This document shows, one piece after another, positions 5,448 through 14,639 of a stretch of 64,000 nt of DNA. A program made the position numbers and the translations under genes. The stretch lies in assembly GCF_001435845.1 (NCBI RefSeq), contig NZ_CM003596.1:2403298-2467297 (forward strand), given 5' to 3'. Numbering within the stretch: position 1 is the stretch's first letter; each line of letters begins with the position of its first letter. The notes under the pieces were generated by a model. That model was not told where the DNA came from. It worked only from the letters and a program-made list of their open reading frames with translations, and ran no database searches. The stretch comes from Psychrobacter sp. P11G3 (lineage in GTDB: Bacteria > Pseudomonadota > Gammaproteobacteria > Pseudomonadales > Moraxellaceae).

Positions 5448-6010
5448 AATCTCTATTCCTTTATCAATTAAAGAGCTCGTACAACACGGAAGGACTTATG
5501 GTTCTCTGCTGTAAATAAGGCAACATTACTTTAGACTTAAATTTAAAACTTCTTTGTGCTAGAAATACTTTGGATATATGACTAACAATATAGATACGCT
5601 TATTTAGTATTCTAGTACAAACAATAAAATAATCAATCACAAAAACGATTATATACAGACATTGTGTAATCAATGTTAATTAAGCAGTAATAGATTTTTT
5701 AGGTGATAAGAACTACCATATTTTTATACGCATAAAAAACTTGTATACAAATGATAATATATATATATAACATACACTTACAAAATTCTCATAAATCTAA
5801 ATTTTTCAGATTTTATTTGATGGCCAATCCCTCTATTTGTAAGGCATAAACCAATGGAGAAACTGAGTTTCCGAGATACATTTTTTCTACAATTTTTATG
5901 CTTTCAATAATCATTATTAATAAAGACATATAGAACATTAATATAAAAATTATACTCAGCAATATTGCAAAAGACTAATGCCTGCTTTCTTTATATTCTT
6001 TTAAGTGAAT

Positions 6011-6163
6011 ATATTCAGCCAAACAAATATATTCAGCCAAACAAATATATTCAGCCAAACAAATATATTCAGCCAAACAAATATATTCAGCCAAACAAAT
6101 ATATTCAGCCAAACAAATATATTCAGCCAAACAAATATATTCAGCCAAACAAATATATTCAGC
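6011..6163. repeat. 18-bp tandem repeat (eight full copies plus a half) upstream of the adhesin
   Basis: The unit ATATTCAGCCAAACAAAT is repeated without visible change from 6011 to 6154, followed by a partial copy to 6163. The array begins about 560 bp upstream of the adhesin start codon. The unit is a multiple of three, so it produces low-complexity open frames that should not be taken as genes. Confidence 0.97.
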
Positions 6164-6404
6164 TATATTTTATTTTTATTAAAATAAACAGAATTAAAAA
6201 TAGAAAGTTATTGTGAATTGAATCGCATAAGTAAAAATAGCTAATATAAACGACGACATTAATAATGCAGCTTGTGACATGATAAAAGAGCAGAGTTGAG
6301 TAAGGGCACACCAGATAGGCGTAGAGCATAGACGACATATACTGACTAGCTATAGCCGTACAGATACTTACTAAGAGACAGCGATGCACTCAGTGCTCAC
6401 CATA

Positions 6405-8972: not shown

Positions 8973-9006
8973 CTTAACATCTTCTTAACAGACCACTTGC
9001 TATGGT
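8973..9006 (+). promoter_or_regulatory. PmrA-type box and -10 of the eptA promoter
   Basis: CTTAAC at 8973-8978 and again at 8984-8989 form a direct repeat with an 11-bp period, like the TTAA half-sites bound by PmrA/OmpR-class regulators. Eleven bases further on is TATGGT (9001-9006), a plausible -10. The same arrangement occurs before dgkA. The -10 covers the ATG at 9002, which argues against that codon as the eptA start. Confidence 0.75.
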
Positions 9007-9046
9007 AAGGAATAACGTTTCCTACCATCTGTTGAGAAGTATCTGT

Positions 9047-10753
9047 ATGTCAATATCTCAAGTCATCAAGACCAATGTGCTAAAAATCAACGCACCCAAC
9101 GCCAATACAAAGACCAGCTACCTTAGTAAGCTCTACGGTCGTGAGGTAAATCTCAGTTATCTTATTATTATCGTCGCTTTATATTTGGTGGCGACTGCCA
9201 ATATTGGCTTTTTTGAGCAGGTGTTAAATGTCTATCCATTTAGCACAAACGTCGGATTTATCCTGTCTATTACTGGTTTATTGTTTGGACTAATGTGGCT
9301 GGTATTACAGCTGCTTTGCTATCGCCCTATTGCCAAACCAGTGTTGACTGCGCTACTGATTACTGCCGCTATCTGCGGTTATTTTACCGATGCTTATGGG
9401 ACGATATTTGACACCAACATGCTGATTAACAGTCTGGAGACCGATCAAGCAGAGGCGATGGGATTATTTGCCCCCAGCATGGTCATTCGACTGCTGATAT
9501 TAGGCGTGTTGCCAGCATTTATCATTAGCAAAATTCGTCTAAAACGCTTTACTTGGCAACGCAGTATTCTACAAAAAACAGCCACGTTGATATTGTCTAT
9601 CGCACTGATCGCAGCGTGTCTTTTACCATTTGGTGACCAGTACGCCAGCTTCTTTCGTCAGCATAAACAAGTCCGTTCTTATGCTAACCCGATCACGCCT
9701 ATTTACTCTACGATCAAACTTGGCGAAAACTATGTCAATGAGCTGCGCCGTCCTGATACTTTCACATTACATGCGACAGACGCAAAACGCGTGGCACCTG
9801 CTAATAGTGTGGATGACAATGGCAAACCAAAACTAATGGTGTTTGTGGTTGGCGAAACGGCTCGCGCAGATCACTTCGGTTTGAACGGCTATACACGTAA
9901 TACCACACCGCTGCTCTCAAAGCAGTCAGACCTCTATAGTTTTCAGAATGCTGTCTCTTGTGGAACCTCTACGGCCTACTCCGTACCTTGCATGTTTAGC
10001 TATGCAAATCGAGCAGACTACGATATCGATACAGCCAAGTATAATGAAAACGTACTAGATACACTAAGCAAGCAAGGGGTCAATGTCATTTGGCGGGACA
10101 ATAACTCTAGCTCAAAAGGCGTGGCTGATCGCGTTACTTTTGAAGACTACAAAACAGCTGATACCAATCCGAACTGTGATGTCGAATGCCGAGATATCGG
10201 TATGCTTGATGGTTTTGATGAACTGGTTAAATCAGGCAGCTCACCGAAAGATACGCTTATTCTGCTGCATCAAATGGGTAATCATGGCCCCGCTTATTAC
10301 CAGCGATATCCCAAAGCATTTGAAGCGTATAACCCTGTCTGCATGACCAATGAGCTGTCTAAATGTGATGCTCAGTCTGTGATAAATGGTTATGATAATG
10401 CGATTCGTTATACCGATTACTTTTTGAGTAATGTGATTGATACGTTAAAGCCTTATGAGCAAGATTATGATGTGGTAATGGTATATATTAGTGATCATGG
10501 GGAGAGTTTGGGTGAAAATAATATCTACTTGCACGGCTTGCCCTATAAGTTCGCACCAGATACCCAAAAACACGTGCCTACGATAGTTTGGTCGCCCAAC
10601 AGCAATACTATCGATACTGAAAGTCTTTCTAGTATGGTTAATCAGCCAGTGTCGCACGATTTTATTACCCCGACATTGCTTAGCTTTTTTGGTATTACGA
10701 CCGATGAAGTCAAAGGTGCAGCAACTTTTTTTAAATTGGGTCATTCTAGTTGA
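9047..10753 (+). CDS. eptA: Lipid A phosphoethanolamine transferase (EptA/PmrC, MCR-like)
   Basis: Inner-membrane enzyme that moves phosphoethanolamine from phosphatidylethanolamine to lipid A, lowering surface charge; this is the basis of polymyxin resistance in the family. Five N-terminal hydrophobic helices (to about residue 200) precede a periplasmic sulfatase-fold domain. GETARADHFGLNGY contains the metal ligand Glu270 and the nucleophile Thr271; QMGNHGPAYYQRYP and SDHGESLGE are further metal/active-site motifs, and several cysteines fit the usual disulfides. I use the ATG at 9047 (MSISQV) because the upstream ATG at 9002 lies inside the predicted -10; this gives 568 residues and a 5' leader of about 34 nt. 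The order eptA-pmrA-pmrB matches pmrCAB of Acinetobacter. Confidence 0.95.
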   Translation: MSISQVIKTNVLKINAPNANTKTSYLSKLYGREVNLSYLIIIVALYLVATANIGFFEQVLNVYPFSTNVGFILSITGLLFGLMWLVLQLLCYRPIAKPVLTALLITAAICGYFTDAYGTIFDTNMLINSLETDQAEAMGLFAPSMVIRLLILGVLPAFIISKIRLKRFTWQRSILQKTATLILSIALIAACLLPFGDQYASFFRQHKQVRSYANPITPIYSTIKLGENYVNELRRPDTFTLHATDAKRVAPANSVDDNGKPKLMVFVVGETARADHFGLNGYTRNTTPLLSKQSDLYSFQNAVSCGTSTAYSVPCMFSYANRADYDIDTAKYNENVLDTLSKQGVNVIWRDNNSSSKGVADRVTFEDYKTADTNPNCDVECRDIGMLDGFDELVKSGSSPKDTLILLHQMGNHGPAYYQRYPKAFEAYNPVCMTNELSKCDAQSVINGYDNAIRYTDYFLSNVIDTLKPYEQDYDVVMVYISDHGESLGENNIYLHGLPYKFAPDTQKHVPTIVWSPNSNTIDTESLSSMVNQPVSHDFITPTLLSFFGITTDEVKGAATFFKLGHSS

Positions 10754-10860
10754 GTGGCTAAAAATAATTTACTTCAAATAATTTGTTAAAAGTAGCTCAC
10801 TACATTCGTTTTTATATTACTCAGTCCTTTTAGGTAACCACTATTTTTTAGGTCAGCATC

Positions 10861-11556
10861 ATGTACAAGATACTCGTTATTGAAGACAACCCCGATATCG
10901 TGGCCAATATTTATGCTTTTTTTGAGCCAAAAGGGTTTGAGTTAGACAACGCGCACAACGGCTATAGCGGGCTAACACTTGCTTCAAACAATCGTTATGA
11001 TGTGATACTACTCGATGTGATGCTACCCGGTATGGATGGCACGCAGCTGTGCAAAAAACTCAGAGAAGAGCTGCATGACAAGACGCCTGTGCTCATGCTC
11101 ACGGCTCGCGATACAATCTTAGATAAAGTCGCTGGTTTTGATAGCGGTGCTGACGATTATTTGGTCAAGCCGTTTTCGTTGGTCGAGTTGGAGTGCCGTA
11201 TCAAAGCGCTCATACGTCGCCATGAGGACGATCATTTTGCCCACAGTATTGCGGTCGGAGCGTTGTCCTTAAACAATAGTGAGCATACTATTATGCGTGA
11301 GGGACAATCACTGAAGCTTACCCCAACTGGCTTTAAAATATTGCACATCCTAATAAGTGCAGCGCCTAGAGTCGTCAGTAAAACTGAGATTGAAGAAAAG
11401 GTATGGGGTCTGGATATACCCAGCAGTGATGCGCTACGCACTCATATGCATAGCGTGCGGGCGCAGGTTGATAAGCCATTTGACACACCTATGATAGTCA
11501 CAGTACCTGGCGTGGGTTATCAAGTTGTTGACCCTAATAAATCAGCAAGCGCGTAG
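10861..11556 (+). CDS. pmrA: OmpR-family response regulator, PmrA-like
   Basis: 231 residues: a receiver domain (acidic pocket IEDN near residues 8-10, phospho-acceptor Asp52 in LLDVMLPGMDG, conserved Lys in YLVKPFS), then a winged-helix DNA-binding domain (LTPTGFKILHIL, HMHSVRAQVDKPF, VPGVGYQV). It lies 107 bp after eptA and before the sensor kinase gene. Calling it PmrA rests on the pmrC-pmrA-pmrB order and on TTAA-type boxes in front of eptA and dgkA. No strong box was seen in the eptA-pmrA gap, so it may be read from the eptA promoter. Confidence 0.85.
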   Translation: MYKILVIEDNPDIVANIYAFFEPKGFELDNAHNGYSGLTLASNNRYDVILLDVMLPGMDGTQLCKKLREELHDKTPVLMLTARDTILDKVAGFDSGADDYLVKPFSLVELECRIKALIRRHEDDHFAHSIAVGALSLNNSEHTIMREGQSLKLTPTGFKILHILISAAPRVVSKTEIEEKVWGLDIPSSDALRTHMHSVRAQVDKPFDTPMIVTVPGVGYQVVDPNKSASA

Positions 11557-11683
11557 TCATGATTGCAGTATGGATTAAATAAACCTCATGTGACTTACTA
11601 GCCGACTGACCGTATTGTATTTGTCGCTCTATTATATACAGCCATGTTATATATCGCATTCTTCTATTAAGTTGTCTTACGCC

Positions 11684-13024
11684 ATGCTCAATATAGACTC
11701 GATAGCCAATAAATTCAGACTGTCTTACTTCATATTCGCGTTATTACTGTGCGCAGCTTTTGTCAGTATTTTCTTGTACGCAGAGAGCCGAATAGAGCAA
11801 GATTTGGTCAAGGCTCGCCTATTGCAGCAGCTAGAACTCAGTCAAGAAAAATACGGTGACCAGCCTATCTATGTCGCTGACCCAGGTATCAAGATTTACC
11901 GCTATGATAAAGCACCTACTAGTTTACAAGCGATAGCCAATGACACGGTGCAAGAGACTTCTGTCACTGTTAATAAAGCCTCTGGAGCAGGTCATGCCAA
12001 CCTGCATCTTTTTGCCTATACTCAAGATGGTCAAACCTATATTTTGACTTACCTAGAAAACACCGAAATGGTGATGGGAAATTATCCAGTCTTGGCGATA
12101 TTCGAGCACCTAGAAGACATATTTGCAGATACGTTAAAAGTAGCCGTGATTCTAAGCTTACTTATCGCCGCTATTTTTTCCCAATTGTCCTCTAAACAAA
12201 TCATCAAGCCTCTATTGGATTTAAAGCGAGCCGTTGAGACCGATCATCATAACTTAAGCGATTTGACACACTTGCCATCTGAGGTCGGTGTCTTGGCAAG
12301 GGCTATCGATGAGAAAAACCACAAGTTAGAGCAGTACCTCAAGCGCGAGCAACTATTTACTGGTGATGTCAGCCACGAGCTGCGCACACCGTTGACCATT
12401 ATCATGGGGGCTTCCGAGGTATTGGCCTCGCAATTAGACGCTGACAGCCACTTAAATGAATTTACCAACCGTATCAGTACCACGGCCAAAGAAACTTCCG
12501 AGATTATAACCGCCCTGCTTCTACTATCGCGCGCGCCTGAAAAGTTAGACGCACCGCAAACCTCTATCAACAATATCGCTTTAGCAGAAATGCAGCGCCT
12601 AAAATACATACTGCGGTATAAGTCTGTCACTTGTCAGGTAATTGCTGAGCAGGAATACAGCGCTTACGTACGGCCCGAACTCCTAAAAATGGCATTGGGC
12701 AACCTCATAAAAAATGCGTTTCAATATACCGATGATGGCGAGGTAACCATTACTATTGATGACGGAAAAATTACGGTAACTGATACTGGCTTAGGTATTC
12801 CTGAGGCGATGATGCCTTTACTTTATGAACGATTTGAGCGACTAGAGTCTCAGTATAAAGACGAGCAAACAATCCTGTTGTCAGAGCATGAGACAAAACA
12901 TAAGGTTGAAGGCTCAGGTCTAGGACTCAGTATCGTCCAGCGTATCATGTCGCATATGGGCTGGCAGCTCACTCACCAAGCCAATCGCTCAGGTGGTAGC
13001 ACCTTTAGTATTTATTATAAATAA
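11684..13024 (+). CDS. pmrB: Sensor histidine kinase, PmrB-like
   Basis: 446 residues: transmembrane helix 1 (about residues 13-35), a periplasmic region, transmembrane helix 2 (about 145-165), HAMP-like linker, dimerisation domain with phospho-acceptor His231 in DVSHELRTPLT, and an HATPase_c domain with N box (NLIKNAFQYTDDG), G1 (DTGLGIP) and G2 (GSGLGLSIV). The frame extends to a TTG at 11615, but the ATG at 11684 places the first membrane helix at the usual position. It partners the response regulator just upstream. The signal (metal ions, low pH or cationic peptides in relatives) cannot be read from the sequence. Confidence 0.85.
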   Translation: MLNIDSIANKFRLSYFIFALLLCAAFVSIFLYAESRIEQDLVKARLLQQLELSQEKYGDQPIYVADPGIKIYRYDKAPTSLQAIANDTVQETSVTVNKASGAGHANLHLFAYTQDGQTYILTYLENTEMVMGNYPVLAIFEHLEDIFADTLKVAVILSLLIAAIFSQLSSKQIIKPLLDLKRAVETDHHNLSDLTHLPSEVGVLARAIDEKNHKLEQYLKREQLFTGDVSHELRTPLTIIMGASEVLASQLDADSHLNEFTNRISTTAKETSEIITALLLLSRAPEKLDAPQTSINNIALAEMQRLKYILRYKSVTCQVIAEQEYSAYVRPELLKMALGNLIKNAFQYTDDGEVTITIDDGKITVTDTGLGIPEAMMPLLYERFERLESQYKDEQTILLSEHETKHKVEGSGLGLSIVQRIMSHMGWQLTHQANRSGGSTFSIYYK

Positions 13025-13129
13025 CCTCGTGATAGTCCAAAGACATCTTCACCTCCCAATCATAATTGCTGATTGGGAAATGAAAAATTTAAACACCCAT
13101 TACGCTTTATTCTTACCTCTCTATATCCT

Positions 13130-13163
13130 CTTAACGTTTTCTTAACCTCTCCCGTCTTATACT
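13130..13163 (+). promoter_or_regulatory. PmrA-type box and -10 of the dgkA promoter
   Basis: CTTAAC at 13130-13135 and at 13141-13146 (11-bp period), followed after 11 bases by TATACT at 13158-13163. Both half-sites and both spacings equal those in front of eptA. The distance from the second half-site to the start codon is 56-57 nt in both promoters. The box covers the -35 position, as expected for an activator of the OmpR class. Confidence 0.78.
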
Positions 13164-13202: not shown

Positions 13203-13676
13203 ATGAAGCAAATCACTCATACCAACCTTGTAGACCCATCAGCCGAGCATAGTTCTATCAATCAGACGACGCATGATAATGCACTCGCAGCTGATAGCTT
13301 TGCGAGTCATGCCAAAGGTAAAACGGGAATCCTTCGCATTATAAAAGCCACTAGTTACTCTATAGATGGCTTTAAAGCCGCATATAAATTTGAAGCGGCT
13401 TTTAGACAAGTTGTGTGGCTCAATCTTGTACTGCTAGCTGCTGTCATCGTTTTGCCTTTTGCGCTTGGTATAAAAATGATGCTGGTCGTCGCTTCTTTTT
13501 TATCTTTGATTGTTGAGCTAATCAACACAGGACTCGAAGCTTGCGTCGACCATACTTCAACCGCCAAACACCCGCTCGCAAAAATCGCAAAAGATGTCGG
13601 CTCTGCAGCACAGTTCTTAGCGTTAAGTTTGTTAATGGTTTTATGGGTAATGGCGTTGTCTGCGCTATTTTATTAA
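13203..13676 (+). CDS. dgkA: Diacylglycerol kinase
   Basis: Small integral-membrane kinase that turns diacylglycerol into phosphatidic acid. The C-terminal ~115 residues carry the family core: a phrase near GFKAAYKFEAAFRQ, three hydrophobic helices, and the signature ELINTGLEACVDHT...AKIAKDVGSAAQ, which includes the catalytic/metal Glu and Asn residues. At 157 residues it is about 35 longer than the usual 122, owing to a polar N-terminal extension of unknown role. Phosphoethanolamine transfer by EptA releases diacylglycerol, so co-regulation with eptA makes metabolic sense. dgkA also follows some mobile mcr genes, notably mcr-3. Confidence 0.92.
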   Translation: MKQITHTNLVDPSAEHSSINQTTHDNALAADSFASHAKGKTGILRIIKATSYSIDGFKAAYKFEAAFRQVVWLNLVLLAAVIVLPFALGIKMMLVVASFLSLIVELINTGLEACVDHTSTAKHPLAKIAKDVGSAAQFLALSLLMVLWVMALSALFY

Positions 13677-13814: not shown

Positions 13815-14639
13815 ATGACTTCAGAAAACAACGCAATGACTTGGGACTGGCTAAAACTACTGTGCGTGACCATCATGGCCACCTTAGTTTTTGAGCACAG
13901 TCAGTTAGATGTACGCATCAGTGAGATTTTTTACAATAATGGACACTGGCTACTCGAAAAAGGCGCACAGCCTTATGCATTTATCTTTTATGATTTGCCC
14001 AAAGTATTATTGATTATATTGGCTGTCTATCTCATAGCGGTTTTAATCATCAAGTATAGACAGTCAAGGCTTAATGCTACTGCACCAAACCGTAATAAGC
14101 TCAATCGCAGTAAGCTCAGTCATTATAAGCTTGATAAATCTCTGCTTCCTTTATCTATGCGCGAGATTAGCTACCTACTGATTATATTGGCGATTGTACC
14201 TGCTACTATTGCCACGCTCAAAGGCGTCACCCATGTTAGCTGCCCAAATGACTTAGCTATTTTTAATGGGGATTTACCCTACCTCAACCTTTGGCAAAAC
14301 ATCGTAGCAGCAACGCCTGCCAGATGCTTCCCAGCGGCTCACGCCAGCGCAGGGTTTTCTTTATATGGACTGGCTTTTTTACCGACATTAAGAAAATACT
14401 GCTACCAGATAGTCATATCAGTAACGGTCTTAGGCTGGACAATGGGACTGTATAAGATGCTGTTTGGCGATCACTTCTTTAGCCATACATTGGTCTCAAT
14501 GCTACTGTCATTAACCATAGCCTGTGCGCTCGCAGCCCTATTTTTCAAACAATCGATTAAGAATAAAACACACAGCACCAACGACGATAAAAGACATACT
14601 GATATTAGCTTGTCTAGCATTGAGCACTCTAATACTTAA
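13815..14639 (+). CDS. PAP2-family membrane phosphatase
   Basis: 274 residues with about five hydrophobic helices and the PAP2 phosphatase motifs in variant form: KGVTHVSCPND, the central CFPAAHAS (PxxH), and GDHFFSHTLVS with the last catalytic His. Relatives dephosphorylate lipid phosphates, undecaprenyl pyrophosphate or lipid A. Its place at the end of the eptA-pmrAB-dgkA cluster suggests lipid A or phosphatidic acid metabolism; a PAP2 gene also accompanies mcr-1. A TTAA pair with a 10-bp period occurs at 13772-13787, but it does not match the eptA/dgkA layout. A polar tail after about residue 245 is not conserved in the family. Confidence 0.85.
   Translation: MTSENNAMTWDWLKLLCVTIMATLVFEHSQLDVRISEIFYNNGHWLLEKGAQPYAFIFYDLPKVLLIILAVYLIAVLIIKYRQSRLNATAPNRNKLNRSKLSHYKLDKSLLPLSMREISYLLIILAIVPATIATLKGVTHVSCPNDLAIFNGDLPYLNLWQNIVAATPARCFPAAHASAGFSLYGLAFLPTLRKYCYQIVISVTVLGWTMGLYKMLFGDHFFSHTLVSMLLSLTIACALAALFFKQSIKNKTHSTNDDKRHTDISLSSIEHSNT

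What the first reader, a model, noticed from the sequence alone, without database searches (positions are those of the whole stretch)
8973..13163. Superimposable PmrA-type promoters in front of eptA and dgkA
Two promoters 4 kb apart share CTTAAC-N5-CTTAAC (8973-8989; 13130-13146). In both, exactly 11 bases separate the box from a -10 (TATGGT; TATACT), and 56-57 nt separate the box from the start codon. I saw no other copy of this pair in the window. The layout says one response regulator, most likely the PmrA encoded between them, activates lipid A phosphoethanolamine transfer and the kinase that recycles its diacylglycerol by-product. It also moves the eptA start to 9047.
Basis: partly seen in the sequence, partly recalled or inferred. 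Interest (0 to 1): 0.75.

Follow-up and report, generated by a model that had tools for sequence, protein, structure and literature searches.

The report
Twin PmrA-type promoters, eptA and dgkA
In this Psychrobacter genome the same two-part DNA switch sits in front of the gene that decorates the cell surface against polymyxin-like drugs and in front of a gene that recycles the waste of that reaction, and the pairing is kept widely across the genus, so one regulator very probably runs both.

Summary
The exact CTTAAC-N5-CTTAAC repeat occurs twice in the 3.28-Mb genome, both times here. Of 105 genomes of the genus, 78 carry this PmrA. In 85 pmrA loci, 84 of 84 eptA genes and 73 of 74 linked dgkA genes have a box of at least 11/12 upstream; upstream of pmrA and pmrB, used as controls, 0 of 170 do. 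A -10-like hexamer starts 12 bases after the box in all distinct promoters; the 56-57-nt gap to the start codon is not conserved at dgkA. Unlinked dgkA paralogues have no box, 0 of 15. Best reading: the OmpR-family regulator encoded between the promoters activates both, coupling phosphoethanolamine transfer to diacylglycerol recycling and to the PAP2 phosphatase behind dgkA. Binding and activation are inferred. PmrA (BasR) control of dgkA is already known in E. coli, so the logic is not new. The variant is: half-sites end in C, outside the A. baumannii consensus, and the regulator differs at residues that read bases in Klebsiella PmrA. The eptA start at 9047 is supported.

The parts
8973..8989 (+). 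direct-repeat box CTTAAC-ATCTT-CTTAAC in front of eptA
   Evidence: a box of >=11/12 in 84 of 84 eptA loci
8998..9006 (+). TGC-TATGGT: extended -10 type element; the hexamer starts after an 11-base spacer
   Evidence: TANNNT at this offset in 62 of 62 distinct promoters; the T and the G of TGN each in 60 of 62
9047..10753 (+). eptA (pmrC/mcr-like), lipid A phosphoethanolamine transferase; start at 9047 preferred over 9002
   Evidence: NF028537 743.8 bits, cut-off 500; start by frame comparison
10861..11556 (+). OmpR-family response regulator (PmrA-like), proposed activator
   Evidence: PF00072 and PF00486; NF007928 PmrA 162.5 bits, below cut-off 330
11684..13024 (+). sensor histidine kinase (PmrB-like)
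   Evidence: PF00512 and PF02518; NF008025 PmrB 94.9 bits, below cut-off 314
13046..13086 (.). 17-pair hairpin between pmrB and the dgkA promoter; may separate the two transcripts
   Evidence: listed there as terminator-like for the minus strand; no T run follows it on the plus strand
13130..13146 (+). direct-repeat box CTTAAC-GTTTT-CTTAAC in front of dgkA
   Evidence: a box of >=11/12 in 73 of 74 linked dgkA loci
13158..13163 (+). -10 TATACT after an 11-base spacer
   Evidence: TANNNT at this offset in 46 of 54 distinct promoters, CATANT in the other 8
13203..13676 (+). dgkA, diacylglycerol kinase
   Evidence: PF01219 83.5 bits, cut-off 22.3
13815..14639 (+). pap2, PAP2-family lipid A phosphatase; no box of its own here, probably read from the dgkA promoter
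   Evidence: NF028538 361.1 bits, cut-off 275; best upstream site 8/12; no terminator-like site on the plus strand between dgkA and pap2

Best explanation
The two boxes are binding sites of the OmpR-family regulator encoded at 10861-11556. When its kinase (11684-13024) phosphorylates it, a dimer binds the two 11-bp-spaced half-sites head to tail, where a -35 would lie, and recruits sigma-70 polymerase to a -10 that begins 12 bases after the box. One promoter gives eptA and probably pmrAB; the second gives dgkA and probably pap2. EptA takes phosphoethanolamine from phosphatidylethanolamine and leaves diacylglycerol; DgkA turns that into phosphatidic acid. Shown here: the boxes, their conservation, spacing and linkage. 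From established knowledge: the enzyme chemistry and how OmpR/PhoB regulators bind. Inferred: binding, activation, operon structure and the metabolic purpose.
For: Box >=11/12 upstream of eptA in 84 of 84 and of linked dgkA in 73 of 74 loci, against 0 of 85 for pmrA and 0 of 85 for pmrB. Among 62 and 54 distinct promoter sequences the -10 sits at the same offset throughout while most spacer and flank positions vary. dgkA copies outside the locus have no box: 0 of 15, best 9/12. In the 14 loci where dgkA lies more than 3 kb from the pmrA start, 13 keep a box. Exact motifs average 2.15 per genome in 78 PmrA+ genomes (168; reversed control 25) and 0.48 in 27 PmrA- genomes (13; control 3). PmrA and DgkA co-occur: 75 both, 3 PmrA only, 2 DgkA only, 25 neither. 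Ten Burkholderiales loci with the nearest regulators outside the genus (53-59% identity) have a >=11/12 box in 8, simulation mean 0.1; 61 other loci in 3. A sigma-70 scan that needs a -35 lists neither promoter, as expected of activator-dependent promoters, though that scan as a whole found no more sites than shuffles.
Against: No binding or expression data. 9 of 78 PmrA+ genomes have no boxed dgkA (my count), so the coupling is common, not obligatory. G016 has a 12/12 box at eptA but no close PmrA, best regulator 37% identical. PmrA- genomes also exceed the reversed control, 13 against 3, so that control is not a perfect background. The species are related, so the counts are not independent. 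E. coli's dgkA, known to be under BasRS, shows only a weak site, 6 of 8 core bases.
Confidence: 0.84

Rival explanations
1. The boxes are read by another OmpR-family regulator of the cell, and the neighbouring pmrA is a passenger or itself only a target.
For: G016 keeps a 12/12 box at eptA without a close PmrA; the own genome holds at least five other related regulators; motifs also exceed the reversed control in PmrA- genomes, 13 against 3.
Against: Motifs per genome fall from 2.15 to 0.48 without PmrA. At least 120 of the 168 exact motifs in PmrA+ genomes are the eptA, dgkA and pap2 boxes (79, 39 and 2; my count); the remaining 48, or 0.6 per genome, are close to the PmrA- rate. Boxes accompany the nearest regulators in another order, 8 of 10 against 3 of 61.
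Confidence: 0.11
2. The second promoter exists mainly for pap2 (lipid A or undecaprenyl phosphate metabolism); dgkA is co-transcribed and secondary.
For: Eleven loci have no linked dgkA; six of them have a pap2 match, and in five of these pap2 has its own box at 11-12/12 (L136, L142, L147, L149, L150); the sixth, L144, is a 47-residue fragment. A PAP2 gene alone accompanies mcr-1.1.
Against: In 73 of 74 loci with a linked dgkA the box sits before dgkA, and no pap2 there has one. DgkA is found in only 2 of 27 PmrA- genomes.
Confidence: 0.3
3. The shared motif is a chance or recently copied sequence without function.
For: About 0.6 exact copies are expected per genome by composition.
Against: The conservation pattern, the fixed 11-base spacer to the -10 and the control promoters in 85 loci.
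Confidence: 0.01

Closest known systems
E. coli BasRS (PmrAB) control of dgkA (Wahl et al. 2011, not read; seen through abstract and introduction passages of PMC8138132, and passages of PMC7559476)
   Same: A PmrAB-type system controls both eptA and the diacylglycerol kinase that recycles the by-product.
   Different: In E. coli K-12 dgkA lies between plsB and lexA, away from eptA (recalled), and only a weak box-like site was seen. Here both promoters flank the regulator genes, carry near-identical boxes, and pap2 follows dgkA.
Acinetobacter baumannii PmrA box at pmrC and naxD (passages of PMC10927774, and PMC12654582)
   Same: 6-bp direct repeat with 5-bp gap and TTAA core, upstream of the phosphoethanolamine transferase gene.
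   Different: HTTAAD excludes C at the sixth base; here both half-sites end in C. dgkA is not named as a target in the passages seen.
mcr-1/pap2 and mcr-3/dgkA neighbourhoods (passages of PMC7559476 and PMC10285318)
   Same: MCR-type transferase next to pap2 and/or dgkA.
   Different: Here a linked two-component system and boxes are present; the upstream regions of mcr-1.1, mcr-2.1 and mcr-2.3 in three plasmid records show no box, best 8/12.

Membership tests
PmrA response regulator (NCBIfam NF007928, equivalog) | score at or above the curated cut-off of 330 bits | tested here: not met
   162.5 bits
OmpR/PhoB-family response regulator | receiver plus C-terminal transcriptional regulatory (winged-helix) domain | tested here: met
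   PF00072 97 bits, PF00486 67 bits
PmrA box (A. baumannii HTTAAD-N5-HTTAAD) | tandem 6-mers with TTAA core and 5-bp gap | tested here: met
   sequence
PmrA box (A. baumannii HTTAAD-N5-HTTAAD) | sixth base A, G or T | tested here: not met
   C in both half-sites at both promoters; consensus from passages of PMC12654582
PmrA-regulated promoter | regulator binds and activates | not testable with these tools
   needs EMSA or footprinting and transcript mapping
Klebsiella PmrA base-reading residues Asn188 and Asn196 on the recognition helix (passages of PMC4660055) | same residues at the aligned positions | tested here: not met
   Asp and Ser in the window protein; over the 85 genus sequences Asp throughout, and Ser, Gly or Thr
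EptA/MCR phosphoethanolamine-lipid A transferase (NF028537) | score at or above 500 bits | tested here: met
   743.8 bits
named MCR-1, MCR-2, MCR-6 families | score at or above their cut-offs (1100, 1200, 1235 bits) | tested here: not met
   567.0, 577.7, 581.1 bits
Prokaryotic diacylglycerol kinase (PF01219) | score at or above 22.3 bits | tested here: met
   83.5 bits
PAP2 family lipid A phosphatase (NF028538) | score at or above 275 bits | tested here: met
   361.1 bits

The most novel reading that the evidence does not exclude
A separate dialect of the PmrA system: a regulator with changed base-reading residues reads CTTAAC-N5-CTTAAC and runs a lipid A modification regulon (eptA, dgkA, pap2, and in some species DUF347, DedA-like and cytochrome b561 genes). 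The complete unit of regulator, both boxes, transferase and recycling genes travels between Psychrobacter species as one self-regulated MCR-type cassette.
Probability: 0.5. Interest if true: 0.65.

Novelty: new variant of a known kind. Interest (0 to 1): 0.45.

Why it matters
MCR-type genes lie next to dgkA or pap2 in several lineages, and the role of these neighbours is still debated (passages of PMC7559476). A genus in which one regulator appears to tie the three together, and in which dgkA is found in only 2 of 27 genomes without the regulator, makes the idea that phosphoethanolamine transfer needs lipid recycling directly testable in environmental laboratory strains.

Tried and rejected
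Rejected: the 56-57-nt box-to-ATG distance as part of the design. At dgkA it varies from 20 to 344 nt (15 of 73 loci have 56); at eptA 57 or 58 nt is common, 51 of 84. Rejected: a separate boxed promoter for pmrA or pmrB (0 of 170 upstream regions reach 11/12); pmrAB would then depend on read-through from eptA or on another promoter. Rejected: a remnant box in front of plasmid mcr-1/mcr-2 (best 8/12 in three records). The mobile copy was not found in the plasmid collection by megablast. A DUF347 search of the own genome found nothing, but its controls did not ring either, so it shows nothing.

Literature: searches listed no title on PmrA control of dgkA in Psychrobacter; some searches listed 20 of 61, 20 of 33 and 20 of 22 papers, and most subscription papers are not held. 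No paper was read whole; for all cited papers I saw passages only.

Limits: the genomes are related and unnamed, and no count is corrected for phylogeny. Box scans covered 400 nt upstream to 60 nt downstream of an extrapolated start (450 and 30 nt). The unlinked dgkA L171 had only about 80 nt of upstream sequence, and three of the 15 unlinked copies are the G078 ones of equal score; a 46-residue dgkA fragment at G061:C2:683788 was not scanned. The best-scoring 17-mer was taken per promoter, so box columns are enriched by choice; the -10 offset and the five inner bases were not used in the choice. The group of ten Burkholderiales loci was set after I had seen their boxes; the two next loci by identity (L214, L215, 52%) have none.
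Full report
What was checked. Both repeats, both -10s and all distances in the finding are in the sequence as stated. At up to 2 mismatches the window holds one more site, with 2 mismatches. The window lies in a 3.28-Mb genome in 5 contigs, where the exact motif occurs twice, both times here; five more sites have one mismatch and none of these has TANNNT at the +11 offset. By composition alone about 0.6 exact copies are expected, and 12 Markov simulations gave 0 or 1 each. So rarity is modest evidence, and the weight has to come from comparison.

The genes. 9047-10753 is a lipid A phosphoethanolamine transferase (NF028537, 743.8 bits against cut-off 500); [quoted passage not shown] 10861-11556 is an OmpR-family regulator, 11684-13024 a histidine kinase, 13203-13676 a diacylglycerol kinase, 13815-14639 a PAP2 lipid A phosphatase (NF028538, 361.1 against 275). 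The regulator scores 162.5 bits on the PmrA model, whose cut-off is 330, so 'PmrA' is a functional label here. Loci with 98-99% identical regulators are titled Psychrobacter, from which I infer the genus.

Comparison within the genus. Of 105 genomes, 78 carry this regulator at E <= 1e-60, in 85 places. I fetched 84 of these; the window is the 85th. The best 17-mer near each homologous start reaches 11 or 12 of 12 for eptA in 84 of 84 (79 at 12), for dgkA in 73 of 74 (36 at 12), for pap2 in 5 of 79, for pmrA in 0 of 85 and for pmrB in 0 of 85. The one dgkA failure is L151 in G074 (9/12), where eptA is not linked; eptA of that genome, on another contig, has an exact motif about 100 nt upstream.

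Promoter anatomy. Among 62 distinct eptA promoters a TANNNT lies exactly 11 bases after the box in all 62; among 54 distinct dgkA promoters in 46, and the other 8 have CATANT at the same place. The five bases between half-sites are not free: mostly RTCTT at eptA and GYTTT at dgkA. eptA has T and G three and two bases before a poor -10 (each in 60 of 62), that is, an extended -10; dgkA mostly has TATACT and no TG. The distance from box to start at dgkA runs from 20 to 344 nt, so the equal 56-57 nt in this genome is a local feature. A sigma-70 scan that demands a -35 lists neither promoter, which fits a regulator standing in the -35 region, but that scan found 14 sites against 14.3 in shuffles and is weak evidence.

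Box follows locus and regulator. Fifteen dgkA copies outside the locus have at most 9/12. In 14 loci dgkA lies more than 3 kb from the pmrA start; 13 keep the box. Where dgkA is not linked, pap2 has the box itself in five loci. Exact motifs number 168 in 78 genomes with the regulator (2.15 each; reversed control 25) and 13 in 27 genomes without it (0.48 each; control 3). The second group thus also exceeds the reversed control, so the PmrA- rate is the better background; at least 120 of the 168 are eptA, dgkA and pap2 boxes (79 + 39 + 2, my count), and the other 48 come to 0.6 per genome. The regulator and DgkA co-occur in 75 genomes, with 3 and 2 exceptions and 25 lacking both (Fisher p about 1e-18, not corrected for relatedness). 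The Pfam model also finds 77 of 105 genomes with a kinase, so genomes without a hit do not merely have one that the protein query missed. EptA at E <= 1e-120 is in 80 of 105, including all 78 with the regulator.

Results against the reading. Nine of 78 genomes with the regulator have no boxed dgkA: G001, G071 and G096 have none at all, G006, G044, G067, G087 and G102 only an unlinked one without box, G074 an unboxed one (my count; the G067 locus is cut by a contig end). G016 has a perfect box at eptA but no close regulator, its best being 37% identical. E. coli dgkA, reported to be under BasRS, shows only 6 of 8 core bases at best, so a strong box is not required in that system. A linked dgkA in G051 is interrupted.

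Outside the genus. In a capped search (the best 80 of more than 594 relatives kept) the nearest regulators after Psychrobacter are in Massilia, Pseudoduganella, Telluria, Duganella and other Burkholderiales (53-59% identity), and no kept locus is titled Acinetobacter. In a sample of 199 genomes of the family the best hit outside the genus is 45%. Eight of the ten Burkholderiales loci have a >=11/12 box although their GC is 0.51-0.67, simulation mean 0.1 of 10; among the 61 other loci 3 do. At four of the eight the box lies before eptA (L206, L210, L211, L213). At those four the +11 hexamer is not -10-like, so the promoter geometry may differ there. No one has shown that these sites are bound.

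Specificity. A. baumannii PmrA reads HTTAAD-N5-HTTAAD (passages of PMC12654582), and EMSA supports TTTAAG boxes at pmrC and naxD (passages of PMC10927774). Both half-sites here end in C, outside that consensus; in about half of the distinct dgkA promoters of the genus the last base is T (25 of 54) or G (1), so that position is loose at dgkA. In the Klebsiella PmrA-DNA structure Asn188 and Asn196 read bases (passages of PMC4660055). At the aligned positions the genus has Asp, and Ser, Gly or Thr; the ten Burkholderiales sequences have Asp and Ala. A changed box and changed reading residues agree, but no contact has been shown.

Known and new. PMC8138132 (abstract and introduction passages) states that BasRS (PmrAB) controls dgkA in E. 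coli, citing Wahl et al. 2011, which I did not read. PMC7559476 (passages) explains this by recycling of the diacylglycerol that EptA makes. The logic is therefore known. I found no listed paper on it in Psychrobacter; PMC7213576 (passages) places Psychrobacter transferases near MCR-1/2. What I have not seen described is the pair of flanking promoters kept across the genus, the box variant, the tie to pap2, and the transferable unit described under noticed items.

Noticed in passing
L131:2020-7878 and matching stretches of L119, L128, L129, L130, L132, L158, L162: A copy of the unit (box, eptA, pmrA, pmrB, box, dgkA, pap2) is 99.7-99.9% identical in six species (G018, G021, G023, G036, G042, G059); about 5.8 kb is covered in L119, L131 and L132, and 4.2 kb or 1.6 kb in the contig-cut others. 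The other loci of five of these species match it at about 74-79%. Its right end, in three contexts, is the palindrome GGGTATACCC; copies of that palindrome lie beside resolvase-like genes in L119, L131 and L132 (Pfam tested for two of them). Megablast found no match in the plasmid collection. It looks like horizontal transfer.
   Followed up: partly
L121, L127, L133, L135, L139, L141, L151: In other species further genes carry a box: DUF347 membrane proteins (a divergent pair in L141), a VTT-domain (DedA-like) protein and a cytochrome b561 (Pfam run on four representatives from L121 and L127).
   Followed up: partly
L161:5266-7019: In G023 the ordinary locus is reduced to the last 58 codons of pmrB plus boxed dgkA and pap2, while its only regulator match is the transferable copy.
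   Followed up: no
L136:6180-7173: G096 has no dgkA, and a 12/12 box with TATACT now stands 254 nt before pap2, as if dgkA had been lost from between them.
   Followed up: no
L157:4061-8350: G016 keeps a perfect box at eptA without pmrAB nearby or dgkA; genes that by eye resemble the DedA-like and YceI proteins lie next to it.
   Followed up: partly
window 5965-6216: An ORF of repeated PNKYIQ units, so a tandem DNA repeat; other short tandem repeats lie left of the transferable unit in L129.
   Followed up: no
window 9047-13024 against L205-L213, L216: The regulator is 53-59% identical to the Burkholderiales proteins, but the kinase only 28-38% and the transferase 36-41%, so the parts may have different histories.
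   Followed up: no
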